From Rhexocercosporidium sp. MPI-PUGE-AT-0058 (lineage: Eukaryota > Ascomycota > Leotiomycetes > Helotiales), in NCBI GenBank assembly GCA_020746875.1, contig JAGTJL010000002.1:62001-126000 (forward strand): DNA of 64,000 nt. Reading direction: 5' to 3'. The notes under the pieces were generated by a model, which had not been told where the DNA came from, searched no databases, and worked only from the letters and a program-made list of their open reading frames with translations. The translations under genes and the position numbers were made by a program. Below, piece after piece: positions 17,914 through 60,446 of this stretch (position 1 is the first letter of the stretch; each line of letters begins with the position of its first letter).

Positions 17914-17989
17914 GTAAGTTATTATTAATTTAAGATCGATTCGGTATCGATCCGGTAGTGATTCGGATATTAACGAGTGATGTAGTACT

Positions 17990-18660
17990 AATTCCCGTTC
18001 TTGCCGGTGCCTTCTGGGCTGCTTATTATATGTGCTGCCTCCGCTGCGCCCGCCTTATGGCGACGATTCCGTCGTATAATTGCCTCTTCCATAATAAAAA
18101 GGAGAAGAAATGCGCTTATTACGTAAAATAAAAGACTCTTTATATCCCCGTAAGTTATAGAATCTTAAAATTGACTCCGGAAACAATCCGTAAAAGCTCT
18201 ATATTTAATATATGACCTAGTTCCCTTAGTACGTGGGTAAGGAGTTCTTTACTCTTTCCGCTGCCGTAGTAATAAAAGATGAAGCTATTATAATCGCCGT
18301 CGCGACTGAAATCGATTCCGTTTGCTTAATTACCTCGGCGGAGGCGTTAAAGACCGAGAAGAAGGCGTTAATAGCATTACTAGAGAAGACTTATGCTTTC
18401 CGTGAAAAGGTATTTAACTTATTAAATAATATTAGTATAAGGACTTCCGATTTTAGCTTGATATTCGGTTGATATTAACGCTTAAAGGCCTTATTAGAGT
18501 TCTCCTGCCACGCGGCGATAAAGGCGGCGAAAAAGCGTCGTTAGGGAGATTCTGGTACAGGAGGAAATGAGAACGAGGTAGAGGAGGAAGATAATAAGCC
18601 TACGGCCGAGCAGGAAACTGCTTGCGTTAAGCGCCGTTGTTTTCGCCGTTTATTGTTTTA
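17990..18660 (+). pseudogene. CopE antisense ORF: Cys-rich (zinc-binding-like) protein
   Basis: This plus-strand frame runs opposite to gag-pol, between RNase H and the 3' LTR. The first part (18036-18143) reads C-L-R-C, eleven residues, C, nine residues, C-A-Y-Y, then V-K-stop-K-T-L-Y. With the two Tyr read as RIPped Cys the spacing is C-x2-C-x11-C-x9-C-x2-C-x6-C, a plausible zinc-binding unit. In another frame, 18233-18660 gives a helical region (A-L-K-T-E-K-K-A-L-I-A-L-L-E-K), an acidic stretch E-V-E-E-E-D and a basic end K-R-R-C-F-R-R. The two parts need a frameshift or intron. The first part is interrupted at 18129-18131 and 18210-18212. Function is unknown; nucleic-acid or protein binding is an inference. 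Confidence 0.6.
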
Positions 18661-19085
18661 AAGGCCTTGTTTCGGATTGGCTTCGTAGTTAGCTCTTCGT
18701 GGCGATGCTTTCTTTATACTCTTGTACGGGAGTAGCCCCTTATAATAAAACCGGCAGCTAGGTCCCTATTGGAGTATCGTTGCAAAACCGCTCGTTAGTG
18801 CTTTGAATCAGAAGGTAGATAGAGAATTTGATTACTATTCCTTATTTCGTAAACTAAAAGTAATATAAAATATAATATAAAAAGAGCGTAAATATACAAA
18901 AGAAATTAAGAGTTAAAAAAAAACTATTACTTTTTGGAACGACACCGGAATTAGTCCGAATCGCCTCCGGTTAGCCTTTAAATCTAATCCTTTATTCTAA
19001 TAATAAGAGAATTTAAATTAATTAACTCCTGAAGAGCCTTATTTAGATTTGCTTTAGTTATTATATTAATAGGATTGCGAGCTCC

Positions 19086-22000
19086 ATCGATTTATCTTAT
19101 TTCCGTCAATTCTTTACGTTTGTACGACTGTTGAATGGCTATTATATTAATTATTAAACGTTTTTCCTTTATTGTATCGAGTTTGACAATACATTTGTAT
19201 AGCGAAAGAGAGTCTATATAAACGACGGTAGGGAGGCGTAGAAGGCCGAGCTTATTAGTTATTATAGCGACGGTAGTCAATATAGAAACAAGTATATTAA
19301 CACTTATTATTATAGCGTAAAGCTCGGAAGTAAGAATAGCACGTATTACTTTTTTATACTTCGTTAAGTTAGCGTAAACGATATTATTACGAAATATGAA
19401 CTCTGAATTCCCTTCCGTTTTGGTATCGATTAGCACCAGAAACCCGATTTATAAGCTTAAGTTTTTGTTATTAGTAAAGGAGCCGTCAATAAAGGCGTAT
19501 ACTTTAGTAGATCGTAGATCGATGGGTATATACCGTAGGCCTTTCTTTTAGTTATTTATTTATTATTAAAGATGTAGATTTAAGGCCTTAGCCTCCTCCG
19601 TGAATGGATTTTGATATTATGTCGCGATAGAAAGATTAAACGTAGCCTTTAGTTAATATATTGTCGCGATGTATATTCTGCGAGCGCGTTGTTTTCGATA
19701 AGCTTCTTTATAATCTTCTTATTTAATGTTAACGATTTTTAGTTTTGTTTCCTGTCCCTTTTAAGATATATAAAGATCGTTTCCCTTTATAGTAATAGTA
19801 TAGCTATTAAACGTGATCGATTCGGAGGGGTTAAGGACTTATATTAGCTTAGTCAAGAAACCGGCTTTTATAATTTATTTTTATTTTATCTTTAAGAACT
19901 CGTTATCTCTTAAAATGAGAGTATCGTCCGTTTATATTTTAATTAGTTTAAAATAAAAGTTTTGCTACGTAAATATTAATAAACAGGAGTTAAACATGGA
20001 GGTTTTTATTTATAAGTTCTCCTAATAGTATTTGTGATACGTATTAAATTAATAGTTTCTTGATTTCGGAATGTTATATAATAGGAGTATTATTATAAAT
20101 ATCGTTTTATAAAGAAACTCGTCCGTAATTTCTACTAGTGGCTACGCAAAGATTTTCCGAAGGAGTTTAATATTAGTTTATATATATGCCTAAGTGATAT
20201 CACGGATCGCTAAAGTTGATTCGGTATCGTTTTTCGTCCGTTTTAGCATTTTAATAAAGGCCGCTAAGTAAATAAGAAGTCGTTAGTTAATTCGTTGAAT
20301 TATTAGTGATTATATTAAGATATTCTTCTTCTCTTTATTATTAAAGCATATGATTATTAGCCTTAACTTTTCTTATAGTATAAGAGTCTCTTTGTTTTTA
20401 ATCTCGTTTATTATATATGACTTAAATATTTAATAGCCTTTAAGTCGTGAGTCGCTTTAATTGATTAATATAAAGATACCTCTTTTTATAAGTGTTTTAT
20501 ATTCTGTCCTTCGGGATTATTAAAATAATAGACTTGGCGTCTTGATTTTGTCTTTAGCTTGTAGTTTAATGGCGAGCTCTCGGTTTCTGGTCTCTTTCTT
20601 TGTAAGAAACGTTTCTATATTGGAATTATCGTTGAATACTTGAATTCCTGGAATTAGTTATATAAAAGGTAATTTAATTGCGATTCGGTGGGTTTCCGGT
20701 ATTATCCTGGATAAGTTGTTAACTCGTGATCTCGGCTTATGGGACTCCTTTGGTAAATTTTCTTTTTAAGGTTTAACGTTCGGTATATTTATTTTAAATA
20801 AACGTATAGAGGTTGATTTAAAGGTTCTGATTTTATTGTCGTTTATTTTAATTTTATATATCTTTCTTTTTATTCTTAGGAAATTATACGGGCCTTTTTA
20901 TTCCTTCTTTTCCTTTCATATTATGACTTAATCTTTGATTCGGAGGTCATGTATATGAGTTGTTATGGGACCGTTGCGCGTCCTTAACGCGTTATTTATC
21001 TGCCGGCTAGCCTGAATCTTATGAATCTCTTTTATAGCTTTCCTAATAGTAGTAGCGCGTTGCTTAATAAACGGATTTAATAAGTCTATTTCGGTTAATT
21101 TGAAGTAAGCGCCGAAAACAAATAATATAAGGATAAGGCCTTAAGGACCCGCTGTATTATTAACTGCTTTTACAATTATTTATAATTTATCCTCGTCGCT
21201 TAATTCCGGATGCTCTTCCGTGACGATTTCGTACGCTCGGCGAAAAGAGCGGTGGAATCGTTTTACCTTTTTAATAAAGTAATATGCCTCCATAAGCACG
21301 AGTTTTGGCGTCGTCTTTATTAATCTTAAAGAGCTCCTAAACTCCTTTGAGTTGAAATTAGTCCCGTAGTCGTAAATTATGTAATCAAGAGGGCCGAGGT
21401 AAATATCTATTTATGCCGATCTGAGTGTGTTAAATATAGACCGAGCCGTAGTCGATCCGGTAGCTTTTTGGAATAGTTTTATTTAATTAAACCCCGTGCT
21501 CTCGTCGACTATATAAAGGACTTATTTAGCCTTTAACTAAATTATATTAACGTAAATTATATAATTGAAGTTAACGTCGTCTTTTAGCTTAAATCTGAAC
21601 TTTTATAAAACTTTTCTATATTTTTAATAGTACTTATATAGCTCTTTAATTTTTCTTATTACTTCGGAATCGGGATTATAGCTGGCTTAATTTAATAAGA
21701 GCTTTAAACGTGTTATTGTAAAGTGATTAAACCGCTTATAAAGTCGTTTAATTTCTGTCTTTATAAAGTAGTATATATTAATCGTCCCTGTTAAAGAGTT
21801 AAGAAGTTAATTATAGCGATTTAAAAAAAGCCACGTATGACCTTTCTTTCGAACGATTAAGTATTTCTTTTTGTTTTAGATTAATACGTTACGGAAATTA
21901 TTATATTATATATTGAGCTTATCCAGCTATTATAAACAAACTAAGAACGGTATATTCGTATCTACGATTATAAATTCCATCTTATTAATAAGAGTATTAA

Positions 22001-22260: not shown

Positions 22261-22262
22261 AG

Positions 22263-24488: not shown

Positions 24489-24701
24489 TATCGGTATAAC
24501 TGTATTAGGATATATAATAACAAAGTCACCTAAATAAATATCGATATTATTAAGTGATTTCAAAAGTATTATAAAGTATATTCTTTTAAGATAAGAGTAA
24601 AGCTCTATATATATATATATTAGTCCGGAACCCTATCGAAACCTTACCGTTTCGGCTATAAGCTAGAGTTCCATATCGGTAAGAATTCCTACGGACTAAT
24701 A
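24489..24701 (-). repeat. CopE 5' LTR (213 bp, element orientation minus)
   Basis: It starts TATCGGTATAAC, a RIPped form of TGTCGGTGTAAC, and ends CTAATA. It is exactly as long as the partner LTR. TAAGT follows as target duplication. Confidence 0.93.
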
Positions 24702-24706
24702 TAAGT

Positions 24707-25660
24707 AATAATAAAACTCCTTTTTTAATAATATAATTCGAAGGGCTTAACTTTATAACTCGCCTCGAGCTTATAAAGTATAAAGATAATTCTTTAACTT
24801 AAGAGATTAACGACGTCTTTAAAAAGAGTTTAATACTTTATTTTAAATTAAATTAAGAAAAGCATATTTAAAAAGAAGTTATTTTTATTATTAAAAGGCT
24901 AACTCGTAATATTAATTAAGTTATAAAACGAAATATTAATATAATTACAAAAGGACTAAATAACTTACGTATTTTATACGTTATTATAAAAAAAAGAAAG
25001 AATTTAAAGTTAATAATTAAAGTTAAGGCTTTATTTACTTATAAGTTAATTATATATCTTGAAGAAGCTAAGGTATTTTATTAAGATTTTAAAGTAAGCT
25101 TTAAATATAACCGACGTTTTAATATAAAAGACGACATAAATATTAAATGCCTTTTTTATTTTAATAAGCCGATTCTGGGTATTAGACTTTAAAGATTTTA
25201 TAAATATTAAAATTAATATTATAAATTTAAGAAGTAGCTTAATTTAGGAATTATTTATGAAAATAAAAATAACTATATTTATATAAGCCCTTAAAAAGAA
25301 AAAATAAAAGCTTAAGCGATTTAATTTCTTTAAAATAAATTAAAAAAAGAAGTCCTTATTTTATAAATAATTAATATAAAAAAAGACTTAAACTTAAAGC
25401 GAAAAGAAAAAGCAGTTTAAAAAAAGCTTTAAAACGCTTAAGAAATCCTTTTAACTTAATAAAATATTATATTAAAATCAGCCTTAAAAGAATTAATATT
25501 AAAAGTAAATTAAAAGCCCTAAAACTATTTAAATATTTTCGTTATTCGACTTTTTAATATAATAAGACTAATTAACGTTTAAAACGTATTTATTACTTTT
25601 AATTTAAAAAGAATAAATAATAACTTTAAAATAATACTTATAAAAACAAGACGACAAAAT
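24707..25660 (+). pseudogene. GypA copy 2 gag, 3' part
   Basis: This is a continuation of the Gag interrupted by CopE, homologous to 5111-5760. The atypical Cys motif near 25147-25190 reads C-L-F-Y-F-N-K-P, with Tyr where copy 1 keeps Cys. The site TAAGT at 24702-24706 is the second arm of the CopE target duplication. Non-functional. Confidence 0.7.
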
Positions 25661-30960: not shown

Positions 30961-33351
30961 AAGTATTTAAAAGACTAACTTACGCAGAATAAAGTTAATA
31001 TTAAGTCGTTACTTACTTTTTTAATAAGTAATTTAATCGCCATAACTAATATTATTAATTACTTTTTATTATAATTCTTATAACTCGTCACTTAGCGTTG
31101 TCGAACGCTAAACTATAACGAGGACGTACCTTTTATACTTTATAAAAGAGACGAAGATTAAGGTATAATAATAAAAGTATATACTAAAACACTAGGAGCT
31201 CTTCCTTAAACGACGAAAAATCCCCTCAGCACTTCGAACACTATTTACGGCTATAAATACCCTCCGATCGCACTTATAAGTCGTTTTATAACGATAATAT
31301 TAACATCTTAGTCGAGCTAAACAGTGTGTTTATAATAGCTGCCCTTCGAATAATTTAACACTACTAACGCTGGACATATAAACTTAAAAGCTTATAAATA
31401 TAATAATTATTAGTACTATATAAAGCTAAAGAAGCCCCTAAGAAACTTAGAGAAAGTTTTAGCCCCGTGAGGTGGTTTAATTAAATTAAGTCGACTATAA
31501 CTTATATTATAAAAGAATAAAATCTAATCGAGCACCTACTTTTTATTAAATCTTAAAAAGAATTAAATAATAAGTTAAACGAGGTTTTTTTAACGAGTCG
31601 TTTTAAAGCGTTAATAGTCTTAATATATTAATAAGCTAAGCGTTAAAGACAATAACCCTCTGAAACACATTACTAAAGTAAGCTTATATAATAAGTCTCT
31701 AAAGGTAGTCGAAGACTAGAAATTCTTCTTTAATATTACTTAAACACTTTATAATAAAAAAGATTTACTTTAATTAAAATAGCTTTTAAGATTATAATAA
31801 ATAAGCTATTAATTTAAAAAGAAAATATATAATAACTAAAAGGTTATACGTAATTAAACGACTTAAGATTTAAAGAAGTTTATAAGGCTAAATAAATAAA
31901 ATTAATTTATATATTTAAATAAATAATAAAGCGCGCGACAGGCTATAAATTATTACGAAGGAAATAAATTACTATAACTACTTTATATCGATAATAAAAA
32001 TTGTCAGATTTATTATTAATAATATAAAAGGTTTATTTAAATATTAATAACTTTAATATAGCGTACTTAAAAACGGAGCTTAATACTCCGAGACTGTGGC
32101 AATTAAGTTAAAGATAAATAAAGTAAGTACGATTAATAAATTATAAATCTTTAGCTTTTTTATATCTCTTTTACGCCTTTAACTCTTTATATTATAAATG
32201 CTTTATTTTTAATTAAACCATTAGTCCTCAGAAATTAACGGTCGAGTTATTACGAGCCTAAAGTTTAACGTAAAGATTATTATTAAACTTTATAAGTTTT
32301 CTTAATCGACGGATATTAAGTCTAGGCCCCCACGCTGCTTAAGTATTAGTAATAATAACTTAATTAAGAGCAAAAGTATAGGACAGCGAATTAGGTATTA
32401 TAATAGGTCAAGCCTGCCTTAAGCTATTTTAGGCAACGTATTAAAATGCTAAAGTAATAACGACTTTATTTCCTCGGAGTTTTAGTTAATTAATTTTAAG
32501 ACGACAAAATAAGTAAAATCATTTTATATAAAGGAAGATTTTAATTAATTTAAACTATACGCCTCTTTTTTAGTCGTTTTGAAATCTCACTTATTAGAAT
32601 TTAAATATTATTATTATAGTTTCGTTGCGGTAATAACTTTATGGAGGACTTAAGCGGGTAAATGGTGCCCTATTGTGAGCACTTGAGCCATTTATAAGTA
32701 TTCCTTTAATTTTGTCCCTATAGAGCTGTCTCCCACTAAGTAAATTAACCAGACTTTAGGTTAGGAGCTTCTTTTAATTAAATATTAATCTTTAGACCCC
32801 TAAACCAAAAACATTAATCGACTAAAAGAGAATACTATTACTTCCGCCCTTAAGACATATTTACTTTTTTCTTAAACCTAGAATCCGGCTTAGCTTATAC
32901 TAATTTATAAAGGTATTTAAGGAATGTTTTTATTACCTTTAGAGTTATTATAAAATTATATTAATATAAAGTTTTTTAAAAAAGAACCTTACCTTTAAAT
33001 AAAAAGGAATTGCCTTAATAAAAAAAGACTTTCGAAAGGCTTAATACTATCGATTTAAAGGTTGCTTATAATATAATTAATAAAGGCTTAAAATAAGTAA
33101 TAAGGTTAAAAACACTTCTTATTTTAATAAAGCAATTAAAGTTACGCTTTTACTTTAAGTCTTTAAATTATATTAAAGAATTATTAAGATTTAAAAGTTA
33201 ACGATATCGAACGAGAGGGAATTTACTTTTAGCCTTTTACCCCTCCTAATTAATTAATAATAAGAAGTAAGTTAAAGGAAAGCGATAACGAAAGCGGTTT
33301 AAGATAGCTTATAACTTATTAAAGTTTTAAAAGTTATTCTCGAAAAGCTTT
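30961..33351 (+). other. GypA copy 2 post-pol region with unidentified ORF remnant, left part
   Basis: This follows the end of pol. From about 31950 to 32640 one plus-strand frame has stops only at probable Gln/Trp positions. It looks Gln-, Tyr- and Pro-rich with acidic patches, a composition like Gag linkers or low-complexity retroelement proteins. From about 33000 to 33351 another frame reads I-Y-F-Q-P-F-T-P-P after correction for one RIP stop. No conserved domain was recognised. It could be an extra ORF of GypA or the remains of an older insertion; no internal direct repeats were found to support the latter. It is interrupted by FotH at 33352. Confidence 0.4.
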
Positions 33352-33353
33352 TA

Positions 33354-33408
33354 ACGTCTCGCCCCCCCCTTTGGCCCACCCGGGCCTTTGGCCCACCTCG
33401 CTTAGTTC
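33354..33408 (+). repeat. FotH left terminal inverted repeat
   Basis: It is the reverse complement of 35132-35186. The element TTTGGCCCACC occurs twice inside, separated by CGGGCC, giving each end two copies of a possible transposase-binding unit after a run of eight C. Confidence 0.95.
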
Positions 33409-33500
33409 ACCGCCACTTATACTTACTAACTTAAATAATTAATTACTCTTTCATTCTTTAATCGATTCTCTTCAAATTTGGAATTCGCATTATTTTCATC

Positions 33501-35102
33501 ATGAAGCCTGAGTATACTGAGCATGACGTCATGTGCGCGCTTGAGGAGATCGCAAATGGCAAGTCTTTGCGAAAGGCATGCCTAGAATGAGGTATTCCAA
33601 GGTCTACACTTCGCCATCGCAACGAAACGACTCAACCACGTCAAGAGGCCGCTAATCACTTGCAAAGGCTACTTACGGTGATAGAGAATCGATTAACTGA
33701 TTGGATTTTGACTCAAGAGTCTCTTAGCTATAGAGTTACGCACACACAAATCAAGGTTTTTGGAGAGAGGCTTTTGGCACTTCAAAGAGACCATCTACTA
33801 CTAGGAAAACATTAAATAGCACGATTTTTAGCACGTAATCCTGTTCTAAAGACTAAGAGGCAAATATACGTCGATTCCGTGCGTGTTAATGCCGCTTGTT
33901 CCGAAGTTATTAGGCCGTGGTTCCAGAAATTGGAGATTCCGGCTATTAAGGCTATTCCAGCTTATTAACGATGGAATATGGACGAGACTGGTATTATAGA
34001 AGGCTACGGTCTTAATGGATATGTTGTAAGGAACGCTGAGAGCCGCAAGATTCAAGGAAAACAGCCAGGTTCACGTGCTTAGACAATAATCATTGAGTAT
34101 ATCTCTGCAACTGGAACTTCTACGCTACTAGCTGTAATTTACAAGGGAAAATCAGTCCAATAACAGTGGTTTCCGTCTCAATTAGACGTATTCGACTAAT
34201 GGCATTTCACAGCTACTGAAAATGGGTAGACAACTGATCAAATGGCCCTTAAATAGCTAAAGAAGGTCTTTATTCCTCAGACGAAACCACGTGATCATTC
34301 AGCAAGGCTCCTCATTCTAGACGGCCACGGGAGTCATGAGACTACGGAATTCCTTTGGAAGTGCCTTGAACATAATATATACCTTCTATTTTTACCTGCA
34401 TATACGTCACACGTCTTACAACCTTTAGATTTGACGGTTTTTTCTATTTTGAAGCGTGCTTACCGAAAAGAACTGCAAAAGTTGAGTTCTTTAATCGATT
34501 CTACTTCAATTGGCAAGCGCAACTTCCTTATCTGCTACCAAAAGGCACGTCAAGAGAGTATTACCCCGTCTAATATTAAGGCGGGGTAGAGAACTACAGG
34601 ATTATGGCCGGTATCTGTAGCCAAGCCATTAATAAGCCCTTTGCTATTAGAAAACAGTAATAAATCGACAAATCCATCTCTTCCAAAGCCTCAGGAGACG
34701 CTAATACTACTTCCGGAGGTAATTGAACCTTTAATTAACGTTCAGACTCCAAGGGCTAGGAAGGATTTGTACGTACAGATTCGTACTTTAGCTAGCGGAT
34801 CATATGACCAACTTCCAACGCAACGTTTGCTTTTTAGGAAAGTTATAAAGGGAATTGATGAAAAGGATTACGAATTAGGGAAAGCAAATATGAAGATTAA
34901 GGCGCTGGAAGAGAAATTAGAGCAGTTAAGGCCAAGGAAAAGGCGGAAAGTTCGGACTAGTCCAAATTCCAAGTTCGCCATAACACGTGCTATTAAGGAG
35001 GCTTAAATCGCAGCTGGAGAACGTCAAATTGAGTCTTTAGAATCAGAATTATAAGGAGAATTAGATTCTATAATATCTTATATAGAAGTTGAGGAAATAT
35101 AG
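33501..35102 (+). pseudogene. FotH transposase, lightly RIPped DDE (pogo/Fot1) pseudogene
   Basis: The transposase would cut the element ends and insert them at TA. From the ATG at 33501 a single frame runs about 533 codons. It contains an N-terminal psq/CENP-B-type helix-turn-helix (about residues 5-130), then a DDE domain with W-N-M-D-E-T-G (D161), L-D-G-H-G-S-H (D274) and S-H-V-L-Q-P-L-D (D310). The 35-residue gap between the last two is the DD35D of Fot1 types. A Lys/Arg-rich coiled-coil C-terminus lies about residues 450-490 (K-A-L-E-E-K-L-E-Q-L). Eleven in-frame stops interrupt it before the end, nearly all explained as RIP of Trp, Gln or Arg codons. All three catalytic Asp remain. Inactive as encoded. 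Confidence 0.93.
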
Positions 35103-35131
35103 AGTTATTAAGTCTTAAATAGGAAGTATTA

Positions 35132-35186
35132 GAATTAAGCGAGGTGGGCCAAAGGCCCGGGTGGGCCAAAGGGGGGGGCGAGACGT
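35132..35186 (-). repeat. FotH right terminal inverted repeat
   Basis: It mirrors 33354-33408 with perfect identity over the outer 51 bp, including the run of eight G. Confidence 0.95.
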
Positions 35187-35188
35187 TA

Positions 35189-36593: not shown

Positions 36594-36597
36594 ATAT

Positions 36598-37560
36598 AAT
36601 ATTAATATTAAGTATATAAGACGCGCTAATAATAACGTAAGTATTCCTTTAAACGATTTTCGCGAATCACAAAATATTAAATAAAATTATCTTAAATAAA
36701 AACAAGTTCTTTATTTTAAAATTCTAAAAAATATTAATATTACTTTTAAGAATAAGACAGAAAATATTAACGGTATTTTAATTTTAGACTAACAATTAAA
36801 CAAAACGAATCAATTAAATAATAAAGACTTACCTTCGATGTTATATAAATTATAAATAAGACGATTAAATTTAATTACTCTTAACCGCTTAATTTATATA
36901 TAATAGCGCGGATTAAGAAATTATTAAAATATCGCCGTTTTATACGAACTATAAGTATAACCCAACGGTATATAATATATTAATTACGGGTTAAAGGACC
37001 GCGTATAAAGCTATACTATAGAAAAATAAGCTTAAATAATTATATAACGAATTATTAACGGATATTCTATTTATTACATAAAGATTAACTATTTATTATA
37101 ATAAAAAGCGTAATATAAAACTAATACTAAAAGAAAAAGATAAGATTTACTTACTTAAAAAGAACATCGTAATTTAAGTAATTAAACAGTAAATTAAATT
37201 ATAAAAAACTAAAACTATTTAAAATTACGAAAGTTAAAGAACTAATTAATTACTAATTAATACTTCTGAAAATTATAAATAACCACCCCGTATTCTATAT
37301 ATTTCTCCTCGAACTAGTACCGCTAAAAGCATCCTTAGCCTTTATTATAAAAGTATAACCGGTAAACCCAAACCCCGAATATAATATTAAAACTATTTTA
37401 AACTATTAATATTTCCGTAATATCGCTAAGTACTTAATTAAATAAAAAAGGTATTTATAATCTAAAAATACTTAAGAACTTAAGTTTAATTTCCATTACT
37501 TTAAGTAATTCTAAAGGTTTTATTTACAAAACCTAAATCTATTTAAAAAGCCGAATCCGC
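36598..37560 (+). pseudogene. GypB copy 1 pol, 3' part: integrase C-terminus and chromodomain
   Basis: This continues the pol cut at 14813. Integrase core and C-terminal blocks are readable about 36620-37330, including a Y-N-S-A-like stretch and the G-Y-N-P box. A chromodomain follows at about 37371-37500, with N-P-E-Y-N-I-K-T-I-L, K-Y-L-I-K-stop-K and S-K-N-T-stop-E, where the two stops occupy the conserved Trp positions of the aromatic cage and of W-E-P. Chromodomains direct chromoviruses to heterochromatin, which fits this silent block. It ends tail-to-tail with the antisense ORF at 37576. Confidence 0.85.
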
Positions 37561-37575
37561 GAAATTAAGCAAGAC

Positions 37576-38100
37576 TTACTCGACTAAAAAGAACTCGGCG
37601 GAGTCGACGGCGGACGGCAGAATAAGCGAGCGAGTAATAAAAGCCTTTTGCCTCTCCCTTTCCGTAGCTTTTTATGTTTTTACTTTTTTTAATTCGTTTA
37701 TATTCTTAAGACTACGACGAAGTATTTCTGCTTCTCGTTTCTTTAAAAACTTCCGTTAATAAGCTAAGCGATTAAAGCGATTTATAACTTCTTATAAAAT
37801 CGTAGTTATTTTTTCTTAAGCCCGTAAAAACTTATTACGCGCAGCCTTCTCGGCCTCGTACGCCAAACGCTCTTTTACTTTTAACTTGTCTTTTGCCTTT
37901 TCGAAAGCATTTTAATTCCTAATTAAAAGTATCTTAATATTATACCTCTTGCTAATTTTAATATACTCCGAGTAACGGCTCGACTCGGAGGATATTATAT
38001 ACGTCTTACTATTTCGGGTATAAAACGTATAAAGTATTATCTTAAAACTATTCTTTTCGATTCTACGAAATAAGGCGAACTATTCTTTCTTTTTTTTAAA
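37576..38100 (-). pseudogene. GypB antisense ORF: six-Cys motif plus coiled coil
   Basis: The minus strand, opposite to pol, shows one frame from about 38100 to a TAA at 37578-37576. Positions 38031-37942 have Tyr at spacing x2, 6, 8, x2, 6, with Y-T-F-Y and S-S-R-Y-S-E-Y; read as RIPped Cys this is C-x2-C-x6-C-x8-C-x2-C-x6-C. A charged helix follows (K-A-K-D-K-L-K-V-K-E-R-L-A-Y-E-A-E-K-A, then R-E-A-E-I-L-R-R), then a Ser/Asp/Phe-rich tail. The few in-frame stops fit Gln or Trp codons. I recall similar Cys-plus-coiled-coil hypothetical proteins in fungal proteomes but cannot name a family. Function unknown. Confidence 0.65.
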
Positions 38101-38229
38101 AAGTGCCGTATTTTTTTTTAATATATATTTATTTAATTATAATAAAAAAGAAAGATAATTATAAAATATATATAATATTTCTTTAAGTTATTTAAGCGTA
38201 AGGATTACGTTAAGTTAAAAAGGAAATAA

Positions 38230-38712
38230 TATTATAAACTCTCCGCGTCCCGTAATATTAAACCCCGGGATAGCGTAATACTTAAGACTATAAGCTTAAA
38301 AAAGTAAGGGTTTTAAAAAAAGAATATTAAAAGAATATCGCTTTTAAAAGCATTTTTTTTAAAAAACCTTAATACTTAAGATTTTATAAATTATATATTA
38401 TATAAATATTATTATTAATAAACAATTAAAGAGTAAATAAGCCTCTAGATTACGCGACCTCCTTACGTAACAACCGCCAGGACCAATAAACTGCCAGAGG
38501 TCTAGCGGTCTTAGCGGTCCTAAAGAGAACGAAGGTTTTATATAAGATTAAGTACGTTTACTATTAAATAAGAGCTTTATGCTTAATTAAAAATAATATC
38601 TTAATTATATTAATTATTATTTATTTTATCGTACGTAATACATTTACTTCTCGATTATTAAAATCAACATAACCCAGCGTATTTACACCGAGTAAATACA
38701 CGGACCGTAACA
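38230..38712 (+). repeat. GypB copy 1 3' LTR (483 bp)
   Basis: It starts TATTATAAAC, ends ACCGTAACA, and is followed by CTACT, the target duplication. It matches 10417-10899 at identical length. Confidence 0.93.
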
Positions 38713-38747
38713 CTACTCATAATGCTTTAATCCACTTCTACACCACA
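38713..38747 (+). repeat. CopF-family LTR, right segment
   Basis: These 35 bp complete the CopF LTR begun at 10273, ending CTACACCACA, the reverse complement of the LTR start TGTGGTGTAG. The first five bases, CTACT, duplicate TTACT at 10412-10416 apart from one C/T RIP change, marking the GypB insertion. Immediately to the right the sequence becomes GypB copy 2 internal DNA. Confidence 0.85.
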
Positions 38748-38899
38748 TTATATTAATAGCTAAATTAAAAATAACGGCGGCAAAGAAAATAATAAATAAA
38801 GTAAGACGAATAATAATTATATCCGTTAATATATAATAAGACTTAAGTCTAACGATTAGACTTAATAAAACGAACGATATATTTAATAACGAGTATTCG

Positions 38900-41800: not shown

Positions 41801-42557
41801 TTTCGTCTTATAATATATATATACGGAATAAAGTAAATTATTATGCGCCGTATAAGCTTATAAAGTTATTAATAATACCGCCACGCTTATAAAAGTCAAT
41901 AGCTTAGATTTCGTAATTAAACTATTACTTTTAAAAAATTTAATTACCGGGATTATTTATAATTCGATTTACGTAATAACGGATAAAATAATAAAGTACG
42001 CGTACATAATATTAATATTAAATATATAAAATATGCCAATAATAGCGTAAGTATTCCTTCGAACGATTTTCGCGAATTACAGAATATTAAACGAGATTAT
42101 CTTAAATAAAATAAGCTCTTTATTTTAAAGTTTTAGAAAATATTAATATCGCTTTTAAAAATAAAACAAAAAATATTAATAGCATTTTATTTTTAAATTA
42201 ACGGCTAAATAAAACGAATTAATTAAATAATAAAGACTTATTTTTAATATTATATGAATTATAAATAAGACGACTGAATTTAATTACTTTCAATCGCTTA
42301 GTTTATATATAATAGCGTAAATTAAGAGATTATTAAAGTATCGCCGTTTTATATGAATTACGAGTATAACCCGACGGCATATAATATACCGATTGCGAGT
42401 CAGGGGACCGCATATAAAGTTATATTATAAAAAGATGAGCTCAAACAATTATATAATAAACTATTAACGAATATTTTATTTATTATATAAAAATCAGCTA
42501 TTTATTATAATAAGAAGCGTAGTATAAGACTAACGCTAAAAGAAGGGGATAAGGTTT
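38900..42557 (+). pseudogene. GypB copy 2 pol remnant: protease, RT, RNase H, integrase
   Basis: Protease-like sequence lies at about 39150-39700. RT runs about 40000-40870, with A-A-K-K-D-G-G, Y-I-D-Y and K-N-R-Y-V-L-P-L-A-K-E-L-R-D-K-L-S. The catalytic region is disrupted by four in-frame 24-bp repeats at 40544-40639. RNase H runs about 40950-41430, ending Y-I-K-G-T-K-N-A-K-A-D-A-F. Integrase runs about 41450-42557 and is truncated before the chromodomain. The antisense ORF seen in copy 1 lies beyond the break and is absent. Many RIP stops. Confidence 0.85.
40544..40639 (+). repeat. 24-bp tandem repeat at the RT active site, 4 copies
   Basis: Four perfect 24-bp units, each 8 codons, lie at the position of the Y-x-D-D motif. 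Copy 1 has a distinct 48-bp duplication at the homologous site, so the two expansions arose independently or from a shared unstable sequence. Confidence 0.93.
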
Positions 42558-44408: not shown

Positions 44409-44720
44409 TGTGAGAATAGGCGAGCCAATCAGGAATGAGGAAGCGCAGTAGGTAAGGACACGTGATCAAAGAGAGAGAATTGCTTTGCTTGCTTACTTAA
44501 AGAGCTAGAAGAGCTCTTCGGTAGTTATATATAAAATAATAGCTTCTTTAAAAGCTTTTACGACTACGTAATTAATTACGTGGCTTATACGAGCTACGTA
44601 ATTAAATACGAGCGTAATTTCCCGGAATATAAAGATAATTTCCGAGCCGCGTAAGTAGTGGAAACCCCTTTGGCTATTTTAGGATAGAATCGGCACGAGT
44701 TACCGAAGTGAAATCTAATA
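44409..44720 (-). repeat. CopD 3' LTR (312 bp)
   Basis: It starts TGTGAGAATAGGCG and ends TCTAATA. The first half is nearly free of RIP, with CACGTG at 44459-44464 and a TACGTAATTAATTACGT palindrome at 44565-44581. It is much closer to the solo LTR at 9962 than to its own partner. Confidence 0.94.
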
Positions 44721-44894: not shown

Positions 44895-46397
44895 TTATTC
44901 GGCTAGTCTTAAAAGCCTTATGAATTCAGTGAATTTAGGCTTATCTAGTGGCTTTGTAAAGCCGTCGGCTTTTTATTTAGACCTTTTTATATAAATTAAG
45001 TCTATTTCGCCTTAATTTATGAGGTCGCAGACGTAATAGTATTTGACGGTAATATACTTAGTCCTCTCGTGGAATTAAGAGTTATTAGTTAATAAAAGAG
45101 CGCCGTTATTGTCCGTATAAACAAGGAATCGTTCCTACATGTAATAGCTTAATTCGGTTAGAAGCTGCTTTATATAAATAGCTTTTTTAAAAGCCGAATT
45201 AATAGTTATATATTCGGCCTTAGTCGTACTTTAAGTTATAATACTTTAGAGCTTGCTTTTTCAGCTAAATAAGTAACTCGTTAAATAAAAGCTCAAGCCG
45301 CTAGTCGATTTAGCCGTGTTAATATCTCCGGCGTAGTCGGCGTTATAATAACCGCTTATATATCGACTAGAGCTTTTTTTGTAAATTAACCCTAGCTTTT
45401 TTAATCTTTTTAAGTATTTAAGCACGTTTTTAAGGGCAATTATGTGATCGGTACTAGAGTTATTAGCGAATCGAGCGAGCTTTATAATTAAGTAGTAAAT
45501 ATCGAGTCTAGTTATTAGCGTAAAAAACAAGAAGCAGCTTATAATTTGCTGATATTAATTTATTTCCTCTTTATTAACTTTATTAAGATTAAGCTTTAAC
45601 TTAGCCTTCGAATCCATTAATATATCTTTAGGCTTATAGTCGGTTATATTAAACCGCGCTAGCACTTTCTCAATATAGCTTTCTTGGCTTAGCTTTATAT
45701 AACCTTTGTTTAGGTTATAGTCGATATTTATATTTAAGTAGTCCTTTATTAGCCTTAAATCCTTTAATTTAAAAAGCTTTTTAAGCTTTTTAATAAAGGA
45801 TTTGATATTATTAACGCTTAGGTTAATTATTACTAAGTCGTCTACGTAAATAGAGATTATAAGCTGTTACTACTTATTAATTAAGATGTAATTCTCGGTA
45901 ATTAAGGCTTGAAAACCGAGTTTTTAAACTAAGACTTCCTTTAACGTAATAAACCAGAGCCTAATTAACTGTTTTAGCCCGTATAAGGCTTTATTAAGCA
46001 GGAGTAGTTTACTAGCGTATTTTTAAGCGTTTATGCCTTCGGGAGACATTATATATAAAGTGTTTACGTTAATATTACTTTATATAAAAGCCGAAATTAT
46101 ATCGACTTTCTATATAACTCAATCGTAAAGGACCGCTAAGGCGAATATAAGTCGCTAAGCCATTTGTTTTATTACGCTAGCAAAAGTATTTACGTAATTA
46201 AGGCCGTAGAGTTGCTCGAACCCTTTAGCAATAAATCTAGCTTTAAATTCGAAGTAATTAAGTAATTCTTTGATTTTATACACTTATTTAGTCTTTAAAG
46301 GCTTATAAGCCTTGCTAGCGTCTTTTAGCATTATTTCCCAAGTCTCGTGACTTTCTAAGGAATTGGCTTCTTTTTCTATGGCTTTTAGCTAATAGTC
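44895..46397 (-). pseudogene. CopD RT and RNase H (3' part of polyprotein)
   Basis: Continuing on the minus strand after the CopF insertion: RT blocks S-H-E-T-W-E-I-M, A-R-F-I-A-K-G, A-L-Y-G-L-K-Q and an intact catalytic Y-V-D-D at 45848-45837. RNase H follows at 45530-44900, with R-L-D-I, N-N-S-S-T-D-H, Y-N-A-D-Y-A-G-D, K-S-T-S-G, S-T-T-K-A-E-Y and A-D-G-F-T-K-P-L. A TAA at 44897-44895 comes just after R-L-A-E and is probably the native end. Both catalytic Asp of RT survive, unlike in GypA or CopF. Confidence 0.92.
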
Positions 46398-46582
46398 TGT
46401 GGTGTAGAAGTGGATCAAAGCACTATGAGCAGTTGTAATTGAATTAAAGTGATTCCTTTTTTATTCTAAAAGCTCTAAGAATCAGGAGAAGACAGTTATT
46501 CTCCTGAAGGCGGTTTATAGTAGCAGAACCTAATTAGGTTACGTGTAATACTAAGAGAGCAGCTGCCCGTGCTTATACGATA
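46398..46582 (-). repeat. CopF 3' LTR (185 bp)
   Basis: It starts TGTGGTGTAGAAG and ends TACGATA. The first half is RIP-free, the second half slightly changed. TAGTC precedes it. Confidence 0.94.
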
Positions 46583-47044
46583 TATCCCTTAAGTAATTAA
46601 TAATAATAAACTACTACTATTATAATTAGCTATATTAAGCGAGAGCAAATAATAAGAAAGAATTAAGCAAATAAATTCACTTATATGCGGTAATCAGGCA
46701 AATAACCTGATTATATGAATTAACGATTTTCTTATTAAACCTGAACTTATAAACACTCGATAATATATAAATCGACTGCTCTCGATCTATTATTTAATTA
46801 ATTTATTAATTAATTAATTAATTAACTGCTCCTTTTGATATTATAAGTATCTTTAAGCGCTCCGCCAGAATCGTTATAGCAGAACGACGATCTGCTTACT
46901 AAAGTAAAGTAAGTGGCTCGTTTTTCAATCTATTAGTTTTAATTTATTAATCGGAGATCAACTGATTAAAGATTAATTAATTAAAGAATAACCGCTGACT
47001 TATAATAAGTTAAGGCTATTATTAATAGTAAAAAGAAAGTCGTC

Positions 47045-47832
47045 GCTAAAGCACGATTATCGGCTGCTCCCGTCCCCGCCTCCGCTCCTCGCCGTGCCGC
47101 TGCTACTCCCCGGGCTTTAAAGCAGCTAGCAGGTGCTCGTATAATAATTTATTTAAGTTATATTAATAGCGCCTTTTAAATAAAAAATAACGGTTAATAC
47201 TACGATACCGTTAGAAAAGGTATTCGCTGCTTCGCTTACTTATCCGGCTATAAGTGCGTAATTACTCCCGCTACTGCTCAGGCTCCTTTCCTTGTATATC
47301 GTAATACGTTGGAAAATAAAACTAGTAAGAAAGTAAGTCGATTCAGTTATTCTTTTCTCGCTTTTTGATTTATTATTAATTTTTCTAAGAGTTAAAGTAA
47401 TTGAGAATCCCGGTCCGTGCCGTTTTTAAGGGTAGTAATATTAATAGAGCTGCTACTACTGGCGCTGCTATTAATTTTAATAATAAAATTACTTTAGGAG
47501 CTACTAATAGATTTAGAAGTAATAATAGAAATAATAATAATAAGAAGAATAATAAGTTGCTTACTTTATTTCTAGAAAATCGAATTAATTTAATTAATCT
47601 TTTAAAAGAAGAAGAAGAGCTTTTAATTGCTTTTGCAGCTTATGCTTATATTGCTAGAGAGAAGATTACTGCCGCTGCGGGTGTTCTTTTCGTTGAGAAG
47701 AGTAATAAAAGAGCAGCTGATTATCTTGCTGCTGCTGCTATTGCTGAAGCTGCTCGCGCTGCTGCTGCTGCTGAGGCTGTTACCGGAGCTGCTCGCGCTT
47801 ATAATCCGGGCCTTAGTATTCTGGCCTTCTAA
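47045..47832 (+). pseudogene. CopF antisense ORF: Cys-rich motif plus Ala-rich helical region
   Basis: The plus-strand frame opposite to gag-pol begins with a Pro/Ala/Arg-rich segment at 47045-47120. At 47150-47257 it has Y-L-S-Y, thirteen residues, Y, eight residues, then C-F-A-Y-L-S-G-Y-K-C. Read with Tyr as RIPped Cys and His this is C-x2-C-x13-C-x8-C-x2-C-x5-C ending in an S-G-H-K-C-like block shared with CopG. A second open stretch in another frame, 47401-47832, carries Asn-rich and then E-E-E-E-L-L-I and (A)n helices. A GTAAGT at 47333 between the parts could be an intron donor, but a convincing acceptor was not found. Function unknown. Confidence 0.6.
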
Positions 47833-48329
47833 GTTATGTCTACTCGTGGAGTTATTCTTATTCCTGAGTAAGAAGCTTAAGCTGCTCGCGTTAAGGAGTT
47901 AGTTAATATAATAATTAATACTTTAAGCGAGCTAATTCGGGAGGTTTTAGGCTTTTTATTTTTTAATAAATAAGCTATTCTTTTGTTTTTTAAAGCTTAA
48001 GAATTTCTTATTCTTTAAGTATTCTTTTATATTTTAAAAATTAAAGCTTACGTTTGCTTTTAAATTAAAAAATCGTTAAAAGTAATTAATTCTTTAAAAT
48101 ATAGTAATTTATACCCCCGAGTTCAGTTGATTTTTAATAAGATAAAATTATAAATGGAAATTTATAAAAAAGAATTTTATAAAAGAATATATAATAATAT
48201 AAATAAAGTTCTTTAATTAAAAAGTAAGCTTATTATATAATTATTTTGAGAATAAATGAAAAGTAAAGAATATATATAAAAGATTACTTTAAAGCGAGTC
48301 TCTTATAAGAGTTATTCTAGTTAAGCACG

Positions 48330-54050: not shown

Positions 54051-54146
54051 TTTTACTTATAAACTTATTTTATAAGCTTTATTTAAATTAACAGCGTATA
54101 AAAGGAAGAATATTAATTTAATAGCTTCGTTAATAGGGCTTATAAT

Positions 54147-54331
54147 TATAATATAGAAGTGGATTAAAGCATTATAAGTAGTTATAATTAAATTAAAGTA
54201 ATTCTTTTTTTATTTTAAAAGCTCTAAGAATTAGGAAAAGACAATTATTCTCCTGAAGGCGGTCTATAGTAGCAGAACCTAATTAGGTCACGTGCAGTAC
54301 TAAGAGAGCAGCTGCCCGTGCTTATACGATA
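54147..54331 (-). repeat. CopF 5' LTR (185 bp)
   Basis: It starts TATAATATAGAAG, the RIPped equivalent of the partner start. The second half is undamaged and keeps CACGTG at 54289-54294. TAGTC follows. Confidence 0.94.
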
Positions 54332-54336
54332 TAGTC

Positions 54337-57300
54337 CTTATATAAAAAGGCTATAGCCTCTTTAAGGCTTTTAGGCTCGTAAATTTAAAGGCTTTTAATC
54401 CGTTTAATAACGACTTTATTATCCTTTAGCTCTTTAGGCAGCTTTATTAGCCTTTAATCGAAGTCTTTGTCGATTTTAAAGCTTATTAAAGCCATAGAAG
54501 CTAGTCTCTTAACGTCTTTATAAACAGAGAAAGCTTCTTTTTCCTCTTCGATTAACCAGTTATTTAATTAGTAAATAGCCGTCTTAAAGCTTAAGTGTAT
54601 TACCGGCTGATTTTCCGAAGAGTTAAAGTCTTTGGCGCTAGTACTAACGTTTCTAGTTACGACGTTAAGCTCCTAGCTCGAATAATCCTTTCTAGGCCTC
54701 TTAATAGGCGCTTTAAGCATTTCCGGGCTAGTTATATTAAGCCTTTTATTAGCCTTTAGCGTTTAAAGGAGCTCTTATATAAATAAGTCGAATTCGTCTT
54801 CAAAGTCCGTTTTCTCGCCCTTTAATTGGTCGATAGGCGACTTTTCGCTTATATTGCCTTTATTAGGCATTTCGTCGTTAATATTACTTATTGGCTTAAT
54901 AATATCGTCGCTAATGCCTTTAAACTCTTTAAGTGTTTCGATTATATAGTCGAATTCAGTCTCTTCCGTTATATTATCCTTAAGGATTAAATCCTCTTTA
55001 ATTAAGACGTTTTTAAAGCTTATAACGGCTCTTTTACTCGGTAAATAAACTAAGTAATTATTAAAAGACTCAAAACCGATAAGAATACCCCTGTCGGATT
55101 TATCGGCTAGCTTATGAGCTCTTTTATTCTCAAGTATAAGGTTAAAAAGCTTAATATGCGAATATAATCGATTGTCGGTAATTTACCGCATAAAGCTTCA
55201 AAAGGCGTCTTCTTTATGACGGAGTTATATAATTAATTCTTAATATAAGTTATTCCTTATAATAAGTAAGGCCATAAAAACAAGGGTATTCTCTTAGCCT
55301 TATAGACGCTAATTAGCCGCTTAATAAGGTATTTATTTAACTTTTCAGCTATTTCGTTTTAAAAAAGGGAATAAGGGCTAGTATATTCACATATATACCT
55401 TTATTATTTATAATAATGCGTTCATTTATTAAACTTAAATTCCTCGGCGTTATTAAGCTTAAAAGCTTTAATATTTACTATAAATTTAATTTCCTTTTAA
55501 TTAAACTACTTATTTATTATATTATAAAAGTCAATAAATACGTTATAAGCGTCGGCTTTGAGTTTTAAGGCGTATAGCTAAATAACTTTTAATCTTTTAT
55601 ATATAATAATGAGGAAATAGCGCTCTTCTTTAAGTCTTTTAACTTTAAAAGGCCCCGCGATATTAATATTAAATATAATCAAAAGTAACGCGTCTAACAT
55701 AGGCTTTTTATTACCAATTACGTGCATTTTGCCGCTATTATAAGCGTCACAGTCGGCTAACCTGTCTTTTTATTAAATTTTCTTTAATTTATGGCTTTTT
55801 TCAATCGTTTTAAGAATCGACTTTTTATTTATATATACTAGCCTTTTATAATAAAGGTTTAGCGGCGAATTTAAGTCTACTTAATATATTATAGGTTCGA
55901 GAGCGTCAATATCGACTTCCGCTTGAACGTAATAGGCGTTATAGTCTTATTTAGCCTATAATTAGCCTTTTTTATACTTTAATAAAGCACCGTTCTCGGT
56001 AAAATTAATTAACCAGCCTTTTTTAGTTATTTCCCTTAAGCTTAAAAGGGTCGTTTTTAACCTTAAAATATAATTTACCTATTAAATAACTACTTTTATA
56101 CCGTTATTACCTTTAATAAGAATATCTCTCGTGCCTAATATCGGTAATACGTCGCCGTTAGCAATTGTGACCGATTTGCGAAGGGTAAGCTTATAGTTAA
56201 GTAACCATCCCTTATTAGGCGTATAATACTCGCTAGAACCAGAGTCTAAAACTAGTCTATAATTATAAACGGTTCTAAAAGCTTAATTTGTAATATCTCC
56301 CTTTAATTAGTCAGAATCGGACTCGCTTAATTCCTTTATATAAGTATTTACAAAAGTACTTATAAATAGGAAAGGTTTAAGTTATACTTTAGGCTTCACA
56401 TTTAACCTACCTTTTAATAAAGGTAAGTGGTTTGTGTATGCCTTTATAGGCTTTCTAGCCGTCACGTGGTTATTTAGCGGCGTAATAATCTTAAATACGG
56501 CCATAATAGCCTTTATAAACTTTATTTTTGATTCGCCTTTTGATTTCTTAGCCTTTTTAAGCTTATTATTAGGCCTTTTATTCGGGTTTTCCGAATTATT
56601 AAGCCTCAGCTTAAGGTATAAGACCCAGCACGTAGACGTTATATGTCCCGTGACTTTACACTTATTGCAGTGCTTTTTATTACCGCCTTTACCGCCTTTA
56701 AACGCTTTATTAGCGTTAAGGTCGGCGTTAGCGCCTATGCGAGCTTCTTCCGAAATTAAGTCGTTAATTAAATCGTTAATATTAATATTCTTAAGATTAC
56801 CTAACATTTTCTCGTATTTATAAGACGAAAAGGCGTCAAAAGAGCTCGGTAAGCCTTTTAATATTAGGCTAGTAATTACGGGCTTAAGAATCTCGCAGTT
56901 TAGCTACTTTAAGTATATGGCGCTCGATTAGATTACGCTAATATATTCGTTTATGTTTTTATAAAAGTTATAATTAAAATCGACAATTTAATTTATATAA
57001 CGGCCGACTAACTTAAGCGTTAATTAACCGAAAGTAAATTAAATAGCGTTTTATAGCTTTTTAACCGTATTTTTATCTTTAAATCGCTCTTAATTCTCTA
57101 GCGATATAATCGACTTTAGCGCCCTTAGCGCTTTTTAATTTTACGTCTTAAAGTAGTCTAGCTTTTCGTAGTATTTTACGGCTAGTTCATAAGAATAAGG
57201 GGCTAATACGGCTTTACCTCCTTCGGTACTCTTAGCGTAATATAAGGATTAGTCCGGAGGTAAAGCTTTACCGGAAATATAAAGCATATAGCCGTTAATT

Positions 57301-58211: not shown

Positions 58212-58523
58212 TATAAGAATAAGCGAGTCAATCAAAAATAAAAAAACGCAGTAAATAAGGACACGTAATTAAAGAGAAAGAATTGCTTTATTTATTTACT
58301 TAAAGAGCTAAAAAAGCTCTTTAATAGTTATATATAAAATAATAGCTTTTTTAGAAGCTTTTACGATTACGTAATTAATTACGTGGCTTATATAAGCTAC
58401 GTAATTAAATATAAGCGTAATTTCCCGGAATACGAAAATAATTTCCGAGCTGCGTAAACAGTGGAAACCCCTTCGGCTATTCTAGGGTAGAATCGGCACG
58501 AGTTACCGAAGTGAAATCCAACA
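58212..58523 (-). repeat. CopD 5' LTR (312 bp)
   Basis: It starts TATAAGAATAAGCG, a RIPped form of the partner, and ends TCCAACA; AATCG follows. The first half carries many CA to TA and TG to TA changes, while the last about 80 bp are almost undamaged. Confidence 0.94.
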
Positions 58524-58690: not shown

Positions 58691-59460
58691 CTTTTATAAG
58701 AAAGGATTATAACTCGAGTATATATATACGTGAGTACTTACGAAAGCATATATATAACTAATAGACTGCACTAGGGCGCGATACACCCTTATAATAAGGC
58801 TCCGTCATATAAACAAGCCTTATTATTTAAAGGCGTATAAGTAGTCGAGAGATATAATATAAGCTCCTCGAGTATATATATTAATTCTTAATAAAAGTAT
58901 AGCGCCGAGTAATAAATTAATACTCTTAAGATATTATAATAAATAAAAATATTTATACACGCTTTAAAAATATAATATACAAGGACTTTATACATTGATA
59001 TAAACAGTCTACTAAGCAATTAATATTAATAATAAATAAGAATATAAATGCGTATTTAAATTATATATAATTAAATAAATAAAATCTAAAAATATAATTA
59101 AACTATAATAATTAAATAAATAAGATCTTGATTATTGTATTTAATATATGTAGATCGCAGGTTTTAAAAGTAAGGCTAAAATAAGGTTTAGTCTATAATT
59201 AAAATCTCGTGCCGTCTCGTTTAATCATTAAGTTATTAAGCTATAATTAATAAATTTAGTCCTTCTAAAGTAATTACTATATACAACAAGAAGCCGTAAC
59301 GGTATATGCCAGCCTCTTATTAACTTATATAATACGCCGCCTCCCGGGTTAATAAGTTTATTATTAATTTAAGCGTCCCGTACCGCAATAACGTAATTAT
59401 AATTACCTTTAAGAATATATATATATTGACCTTTATATTATTATAATTAACCTTTACTTA
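58691..59460. other. Non-coding stretch, nothing identified
   Basis: The DNA is AT-rich. The string CTCGAGTATATATA occurs twice (about 58693 and 58858), and a 9-bp inverted repeat CTTATTAAC/GTTAATAAG brackets a CCTCCCGGG core near 59317-59357. The 3' LTR of CopG should lie in or near this stretch, but without its partner LTR in the window its limits cannot be set. Confidence 0.4.
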
Positions 59461-59564
59461 ATATTAACGTATTTTATATTCGCGTGCCTACCTACCTACT
59501 TATTTTTTTCTTTTGTCTTCTAATCTTTTATCTCTTTTAATAAATTCTCCTCGATCACTAGCCA

Positions 59565-60446
59565 TGCCTCCTAAAACTTTTAAAGCAGCGACTGCGCGTA
59601 TTAATAATCAAATCGCAGCTCGTTAGGTAAGTTCTTCTTTAATTTTGAATGACTCTAGCACCGTTAAACTAATTATTAATAATTATATTATAAGATTTTA
59701 AAAATAAGTTCGATGACTATAAAGTATTTAGTAATAAGCTTACTAATAAGCTTTTTAATAATCCTCCTTCTACTCGTTTAGTCGTCAAAATAAATCTTAA
59801 AAATAATTAATAATATTTTTCTTTACGCAAAAATGAGAATACGTTTATTAATAACTTTAATAATAAGCTAATTCTCCTTTAATCTTCTCGTATTAAGCTA
59901 AACTCGTTATTTAAAAAGACTTTCACGCGTTCTTTTAATATTTTATTATTATTAATTATATTAAATAAAAGCGTTATTATATTAAATAAAAATAGCTTTT
60001 AATATACCTTTTTTATTTCGCGCGTTTCGCGTCTTAATTCGACTCCTTCTCTTACCCTTCTTCTTACTTTTAAGACTTATACTTATTCTTTATTAACTTT
60101 AAAGAAGCGTAAATCGTCTCGTACTTTATTTAAGCCTCGCTCTCTTATTAAACGCGCTCGAGGTATATATATATTATTTTAAAGCTTGCTTTTTATTAAT
60201 AATTTATTTTATTTATATTAATTAAGATTTAAAAAAAGAGTTTACAGATCCTTATTTATTATATATTCGCGTTATTATTCGTGGCCGTAATAATCGTAAA
60301 TATTACTTCGTTAATACTTTCGCTATTAGAAGTCGATATTATAACTATACTTCCGGTCATAAGTGCGATTCCGCTACAAGAGATGTGCTTAAATATAATA
60401 AAAGATTAATTGCAATTATAAACTCTAATAATAAAAAGATATAATA
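59565..60446 (+). pseudogene. CopG antisense ORF: Cys-rich motif
   Basis: The plus strand, opposite to pol, starts with an ATG at 59565 (M-P-P-K-T-F-K-A-A-T-A-R). A GTAAGT about 65 bp later may be an intron donor. After a damaged stretch, 60247-60446 is open in another frame and reads D-P-Y-L-L-Y, twelve residues, Y-Y, ten residues, Y-Y-N-Y-T-S-G-H-K-C (60253-60366). Taking Tyr as RIPped Cys the spacing is C-x2-C-x13-C-x10-C-x2-C-x5-C, matching CopF, where different Cys survive. No further domain was recognised. The orientation and place relative to pol match CopE, CopF and GypB. Confidence 0.6.

What the first reader, a model, noticed from the sequence alone, without database searches (positions are those of the whole stretch)
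17990..60446. Antisense six-Cys ORF shared by four LTR-retrotransposon lineages
Seen: GypB (37576-38100, minus), CopE (17990-18660, plus), CopF (47045-47832, plus) and CopG (59565-60446, plus) each have, antisense to gag-pol and between pol and the 3' LTR, a frame with Cys (or RIP-derived Tyr) spaced C-x2-C-x(6-13)-C-x(8-10)-C-x2-C-x(5,6)-C, followed by helical or charged sequence in at least GypB, CopE and CopF. GypB is Ty3/gypsy and the others Ty1/copia, so the same accessory module occurs in two superfamilies. Antisense accessory ORFs after pol are known in some plant LTR elements (Tat/Retand type). I do not know of a named fungal counterpart. Inference: a zinc-binding protein possibly involved in nucleic-acid binding, regulation or silencing avoidance.
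Basis: partly seen in the sequence, partly recalled or inferred. Interest (0 to 1): 0.88.

Follow-up and report, generated by a model that had tools for sequence, protein, structure and literature searches.

The report
Antisense zinc-cluster genes in fungal retrotransposons
Several families of mutated jumping genes in this apparently fungal genome carry, on the strand opposite to their replication genes, a small extra gene for a six-cysteine protein, which in the best-studied family looks like a fungal DNA-binding zinc cluster joined to a long helix.

Summary

CopE, CopF and CopG show six Cys/Tyr columns across 20 RIP-mutated copies each, in the stated frames and no other of 24. Reverse transcriptase found at 1.19-1.66 kb is on the opposite strand (12 of 12). 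Transversions concentrate at third positions of the antisense frames (36 of 63). CopF and CopE have likely antisense-strand introns.

'One module in two superfamilies' is not shown: only CopF and CopG match by profile. A fungal counterpart is in print: antisense gene brtn of Boty. Best reading: self-encoded antisense zinc-cluster regulators; function unproven.

The parts
37507..38100 (-). Gyp (Ty3/gypsy) antisense accessory gene, RIP-degraded: basic N-end, six-Cys cluster, long helix, acidic tail
   Evidence: Profile of 21 intact relatives matches 37507-38100 minus over positions 6-185 of 189, E 7e-23; 22 of 27 other copies net in frame, 25 of 27 over a 534-bp stretch
37942..38031 (-). six-Cys motif of the Gyp antisense gene (C or RIP-derived Y)
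   Evidence: column counts in 28 rows; intact in 21 of 65 relatives
36596..37148 (+). resumed integrase end of the Gyp element, sense strand (inferred from the parallel copy 42006-42557, just past a below-cut-off H2C2 match at 41725-41889, E 0.0011)
10391..10901 (.). 5' LTR of the Gyp element (inferred)
   Evidence: 83.6% identical to 38204-38714; element later split by nested insertions
38204..38714 (.). 3' LTR of the Gyp element, next to the start of the antisense gene (inferred)
17949..18149 (+). CopE antisense gene, Cys frame up to the likely donor site
   Evidence: frame free of fixed stops 17835-18210
18036..18143 (+). CopE six-Cys motif
   Evidence: C/Y counts 15/5, 17/3, 15/5, 14/6, 7/13, 6/14 in 20 copies
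18150..18229 (+). CopE likely intron (GTAAGT donor at 18150; acceptor AG ending at 18220 or 18229)
   Evidence: GTAAGT in 6 of 20 copies, at least 90% fit its RIP forms; G at 18220 in 9 of 20, at 18229 in 4 of 20
18230..18656 (+). CopE antisense gene, second frame (helical, charged)
   Evidence: runs of 80 and 60 codons without fixed stops; translations of 20 copies
47045..47332 (+). CopF antisense gene, Cys-bearing exon (its first part is not shown to be coding)
47150..47257 (+). CopF six-Cys motif
   Evidence: C/Y counts 7/13, 8/12, 2/17 (of 19), 15/5, 7/13, 14/6
47333..47388 (+). CopF likely 56-bp phase-0 intron (GTAAGT donor, CTGAT-like branch, TAG acceptor)
   Evidence: GTAAGT in 16 of 20 copies; acceptor G in 3 of 20, A in 17
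47389..47947 (+). CopF antisense gene, second exon (Ala-rich, charged)
   Evidence: 187 codons without a fixed stop to the end of the alignment
60226..60439 (+). CopG antisense gene, Cys exon
   Evidence: 72-codon run without fixed stops
60253..60366 (+). CopG six-Cys motif
   Evidence: C/Y counts 1/19, 1/19, 5/15, 3/17, 2/18, 15/5 in 20 copies
59627..59632 (+). CopG conserved GTAAGT, possible donor of an upstream exon
   Evidence: 15 of 20 copies
17346..17563 (.). CopE 3' LTR (partner 24491-24708)
46405..46591 (.). CopF 3' LTR (partner 54154-54340)

Best explanation
Each family carries an accessory gene past pol on the strand opposite to gag-pol, next to the 3' LTR. Shown: the Gyp gene is a real protein family; the frames are kept among copies and bear third-position transversion bias; position and orientation recur. 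Inferred: an antisense mRNA starts in or near the 3' LTR, is spliced in at least CopF and CopE, and makes a small nuclear protein. In the Gyp family this is a Zn2Cys6-like cluster that binds DNA, followed by a long helix that dimerises it, with an acidic tail that can recruit the transcription machinery. The protein most likely binds the element's own LTR and sets the level of sense transcription, as HBZ does for HTLV-1 provirus (recalled). The antisense strand lets the gene keep introns, because the sense genomic RNA is not spliced there. The three copia genes probably do the same with their own six-Cys domains, of separate or very old origin.
Confidence: 0.5

Rival explanations
1. The protein binds element RNA or DNA in another role: nucleocapsid-like chaperone, nuclear import of the integration complex, or protection from silencing (Dicer, RIP, heterochromatin).
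For: Six Cys and a net charge of +3 to +4 in the cluster in 5 of 5 proteins examined suit any nucleic acid; plant antisense proteins, some nuclear, are of unknown role (passages).
Confidence: 0.3
2. The antisense transcript is the working part, as regulatory RNA or a small-RNA source, and the protein is secondary.
For: B. cinerea BcGypsy1, the subfamily with brtn, makes small RNAs (passages); antisense RNA roles are discussed for plant elements (passages).
Against: Third-position bias, kept reading frames and 21 relatives with all six Cys point to selection on the protein.
Confidence: 0.12
3. No gene: an artefact of RIP, AT-richness or constraint on the sense strand.
For: All 27 other copies of the Gyp frame examined carry stops, 4 to 13 each; Tyr codons are common in AT-rich DNA.
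Against: Intact database relatives. In the Gyp frame the transversion-rich position is second position of the longest open sense frame and the poorest is its third, opposite to sense-strand constraint (worked out). The pattern occurs in 0.019 frames per shuffle.
Confidence: 0.03
4. All four genes are one ancient module passed between superfamilies.
For: Same place, strand and six-Cys layout.
Against: Profile comparisons fail except CopF with CopG; first spacer x6 vs x11-13.
Confidence: 0.2

Closest known systems
Boty / BcGypsy1 antisense gene brtn (Botrytis cinerea, Sclerotinia; Zhao et al. 2011, not held; seen through citing papers)
   Same: Additional antisense gene of a fungal LTR element, listed among antisense ORFs between pol and 3' LTR (PMC7264820, passages); in the gypsy subfamily BcGypsy1 (PMC8365987, passages); brtn-106 in a Boty-like element (PMC4227169, passages); a Monilinia transcript similar to BRTN (PMC5987419, passage)
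   Different: BRTN's sequence could not be compared here; the passages read name no zinc cluster and no copia counterpart of brtn (PMC8365987 mentions other additional ORFs in B. cinerea elements without detail)
Plant Grande / RIRE2 / Retand antisense aORF-3R, incl. TRP28 (PF04195)
   Same: Antisense to gag-pol between pol and 3' LTR; nuclear (Grande) or DNA-binding (TRP28) role suspected
   Different: Other domains in the passages read; the word zinc occurs in neither paper's main text (PMC7264820, PMC11963269)
HTLV-1 HBZ (features recalled; named in PMC11963269, passage)
   Same: Antisense gene near the 3' LTR for a nuclear, coiled-coil DNA-binding regulator; spliced (recalled)
   Different: bZIP rather than zinc cluster; no sequence relation tested
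Fungal Zn2Cys6 transcription factors (PPR1, LEU3, Pho7, PUT3; Gal4 recalled)
   Same: Six-Cys spacing (Gyp family), predicted cluster fold, following helix, acidic tail
   Different: Pfam scores shown are below cut-off; Cys loops look less basic; small proteins of about 170-220 residues with no other Pfam domain above cut-off shown; encoded by a retroelement

Membership tests
Fungal Zn2Cys6 (Zn_clus, PF00172) proteins | six Cys spaced C-x2-C-x6-C-x5..12-C-x2-C-x6..8-C (pattern recalled) | tested here: met
   Gyp family, 21 of 65 relatives; the copia genes have x11-13 in the first spacer and CopF and CopG x5 in the last, so they do not meet it
Fungal Zn2Cys6 (Zn_clus, PF00172) proteins | Pfam profile above gathering score | tested here: not met
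   P0001 18.2 bits against 21, P0002 15.7, P0004 13.1, P0028 13.8; 13 of 27 members match at E<=0.1, best E 5.6e-4, that member's bits not shown
Fungal Zn2Cys6 (Zn_clus, PF00172) proteins | binuclear cluster fold | tested here: inconclusive
Fungal Zn2Cys6 (Zn_clus, PF00172) proteins | binding of two zinc ions and of DNA | not testable with these tools
   needs biochemistry
Antisense accessory ORFs (aORF-3R) of LTR elements | ORF between pol and 3' LTR, antisense to gag-pol | tested here: met
   LTR side seen in the window for Gyp, CopE and CopF, not for CopG
Antisense accessory ORFs (aORF-3R) of LTR elements | present in many copies of the family | tested here: met
   42, 43, 41 and 41 DNA matches, window copies and short pieces included, lower bounds
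Boty brtn | sequence relation to BRTN | not testable with these tools
   paper not held; no BRTN sequence at hand

The most novel reading that the evidence does not exclude
Fungal LTR retrotransposons of both superfamilies have repeatedly taken up host-type zinc-cluster genes in antisense orientation, kept with their introns because the genomic RNA is never spliced on that strand, and use them as self-encoded regulators of their own LTRs: a fungal answer to HBZ built from the fungal kind of zinc cluster.
Probability: 0.3. Interest if true: 0.82.

Novelty: new variant of a known kind. Interest (0 to 1): 0.62.

Why it matters
Antisense accessory genes of LTR elements are known in plants and in Boty-type fungal elements, and the review read here in passages calls their function unknown. 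If the fungal ones are zinc-cluster proteins, if copia as well as gypsy elements have them, and if some are spliced, the question becomes a set of simple bench tests (zinc content, LTR binding, reporter assays). The 65 database proteins found here, mostly 'hypothetical', would gain a source and a likely role.

Tried and rejected
Pfam on stop-free pieces of the pol regions of CopE (26), CopF (23), CopG (8) and of the other strand of CopE and CopF (54) gave nothing usable: RIP is too heavy. Orientation was therefore taken from RVT_2 and Integrase_H2C2 places elsewhere in the genome.

A scan of viral contigs with P0001 found no relative. A protein search with one CopE Cys stretch found none at E<=10, so no database relative of a copia gene is known here; CopF and CopG were not searched. 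No solved structure matched convincingly by sequence: best E 0.84 for P0001 and 0.14 for the profile. CGG/CCG triplets in LTRs: no clear excess. A CopG intron after the Cys exon was considered and not claimed: its donor reads GTATAA. Foldseek against the PDB: no match at E<=10. A second structure model was not finished when last asked. Papers on fungal LTR elements searched for antisense or zinc ORFs without result: PMC5445492 and PMC4522978, passages only.

Rows left out: one search used 75 of the 81 rows (six short or weak rows left out); one search used 26 of 43 CopE rows, 40 of 41 CopF rows and 40 of 41 CopG rows (mostly fragments left out). One search listed only part of its matches. RVT_2 places within 4 kb that do not fit the 1.2-1.7 kb pattern, 7 of 19, are taken to belong to other elements: 5 on the opposite strand, 2 on the same strand.
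Full report
Setting. The window is part of an unnamed 62.7-Mb assembly of 60 contigs. Its GC is mostly 0.2-0.33, and copies of each repeat differ almost only by transitions (ratio 27-115). This is the mark of RIP, so I take the organism to be an ascomycete (inference). The region is nested LTR elements. Self-comparison reads as one Gyp element with LTRs at 10391-10901 and 38204-38714, whose integrase is split by another element (ends near 14811 and 36607), which itself holds CopE (LTRs 17346-17563 and 24491-24708). CopF (46405-46591 and 54154-54340) sits in a larger element (44409-44718 and 58216-58523), taken as copia because a Pfam SH3_retrovirus match lies at 54778-55182 and an RVT_2 match at window 45621-46346, both minus.

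Check of the frames. I aligned 28 rows of the Gyp region and 20 each of CopE, CopF and CopG, window copy included. In the Gyp frame, 22 of 27 other copies keep the frame in net over 38100-37508 and 25 of 27 over a 534-bp stretch. Of 20 codon columns with a stop, 17 also hold sense codons in other copies, with Gln or Arg among them in 14, as RIP change would give; three are stops in all 28 rows. The six Cys columns read Tyr or Cys (one copy has a stop at one of them).

Is it protein coding? Yes for Gyp. A search with six X-masked copies found four proteins, the best at 1.5e-49; a second round found 65 at E<=0.01, nearly all metagenomic, one from Pseudogymnoascus. Twenty-one of 65 hold all six Cys; of the rest, those I looked at have Tyr or another residue at one or more sites or are fragments. 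A profile of those 21 matches the window at 37507-38100 minus with E 7e-23 over positions 6-185 of 189, and P0001 has 81 matches in this genome, all but two short ones with stops. Transversions, which RIP does not make, fall at codon positions 1/2/3 of the antisense frames as 19/8/36 (p 7.7e-5), and 10/4/17 in Gyp alone. In the Gyp region the richest position is second position of the longest open sense frame and the poorest is its third (worked out), so sense constraint does not explain it. The copia genes rest on the C/Y columns, the open frames and 32 of those 63 transversion columns (9/4/19), without intact relatives.

Orientation. All 10 Integrase_H2C2 places within 5 kb of a Gyp-type gene lie on the opposite strand, 1.07-1.34 kb away. 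RVT_2 places lie opposite at 1.19-1.27 kb for 8 CopG and 3 CopF copies and at 1.66 kb for 1 CopE copy; 7 further RVT_2 places within 4 kb do not fit this distance. Most copies have no detected neighbour, because the pol genes are degraded and one search was capped. One copia with an open RT frame shows no such gene in the 3 kb examined.

Splicing. CopF has a conserved GTAAGT at 47333 (16 of 20 copies exact), a CTGAT-like branch site and a TAG acceptor ending at 47388 (G kept in 3 of 20), a 56-bp phase-0 intron that would lead from the Cys frame into the 187-codon open frame starting at 47389. CopE has GTAAGT at 18150 (6 of 20 exact) with acceptors at 18220 or 18229, again leading into the next open frame. 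Further conserved GTAAGT sites at 17914, 46909 and 59627 lie on the same strand; none lies on the other strand in the four alignments. This is sequence evidence only.

One module or several? Profile comparison links CopF with CopG only; CopE and the Gyp family stand apart in the pairs run (CopG against Gyp was not run), and the first Cys spacer is x6 in Gyp but x11-13 in the copia genes. So the finding is a shared layout in at least three sequence groups, and homology across superfamilies is unproven.

What is known. Antisense ORFs past pol are known in plant Grande, RIRE2, Retand and PvRetro13 (PMC7264820 and PMC11963269, passages). A fungal case exists: brtn in Boty of Botrytis and Sclerotinia (PMC7264820, PMC8365987, PMC4227169, passages), with a BRTN-like Monilinia transcript (PMC5987419, passage). 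The original paper is not held. Nine paper searches (two returned nothing) listed no paper that I recognised as describing a zinc-cluster antisense gene in a fungal LTR element, judged from titles and abstract starts; the library covers only open-licence papers.

Mechanism. My choice is self-regulation: an antisense mRNA from the 3' LTR side makes a dimeric zinc-cluster protein that binds the element's LTR. Shown: gene, constraint, position; by prediction only: architecture. Inferred: transcription, splicing, zinc, DNA target, effect. LTRs show no clear excess of CGG/CCG triplets, so the target is open.

Noticed in passing
window 33350-35150: A GC-richer DNA transposon with a DDE_1 transposase (34257-34586 plus, E 2e-23); one plus frame has 17 stops against 36-47 in the other five.
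   Followed up: partly
window 18001-19000 and 47001-48000: The antisense gene regions of CopE and CopF are GC-richer (0.40, 0.36) than the rest of their elements (about 0.22-0.33); those of CopG and Gyp are not.
   Followed up: no
window 38204-42557: A second, truncated Gyp copy seems to start at the same LTR, as in a tandem sharing one LTR.
   Followed up: no
L089: A copia with an open RT frame in this genome has no antisense six-Cys gene in the 3 kb examined past pol.
   Followed up: partly
database proteins P0003, P0046, P0051: Members of this family carry source names (efflux pump subunit, DNA glycosylase, transposase) that look like misannotation.
   Followed up: no
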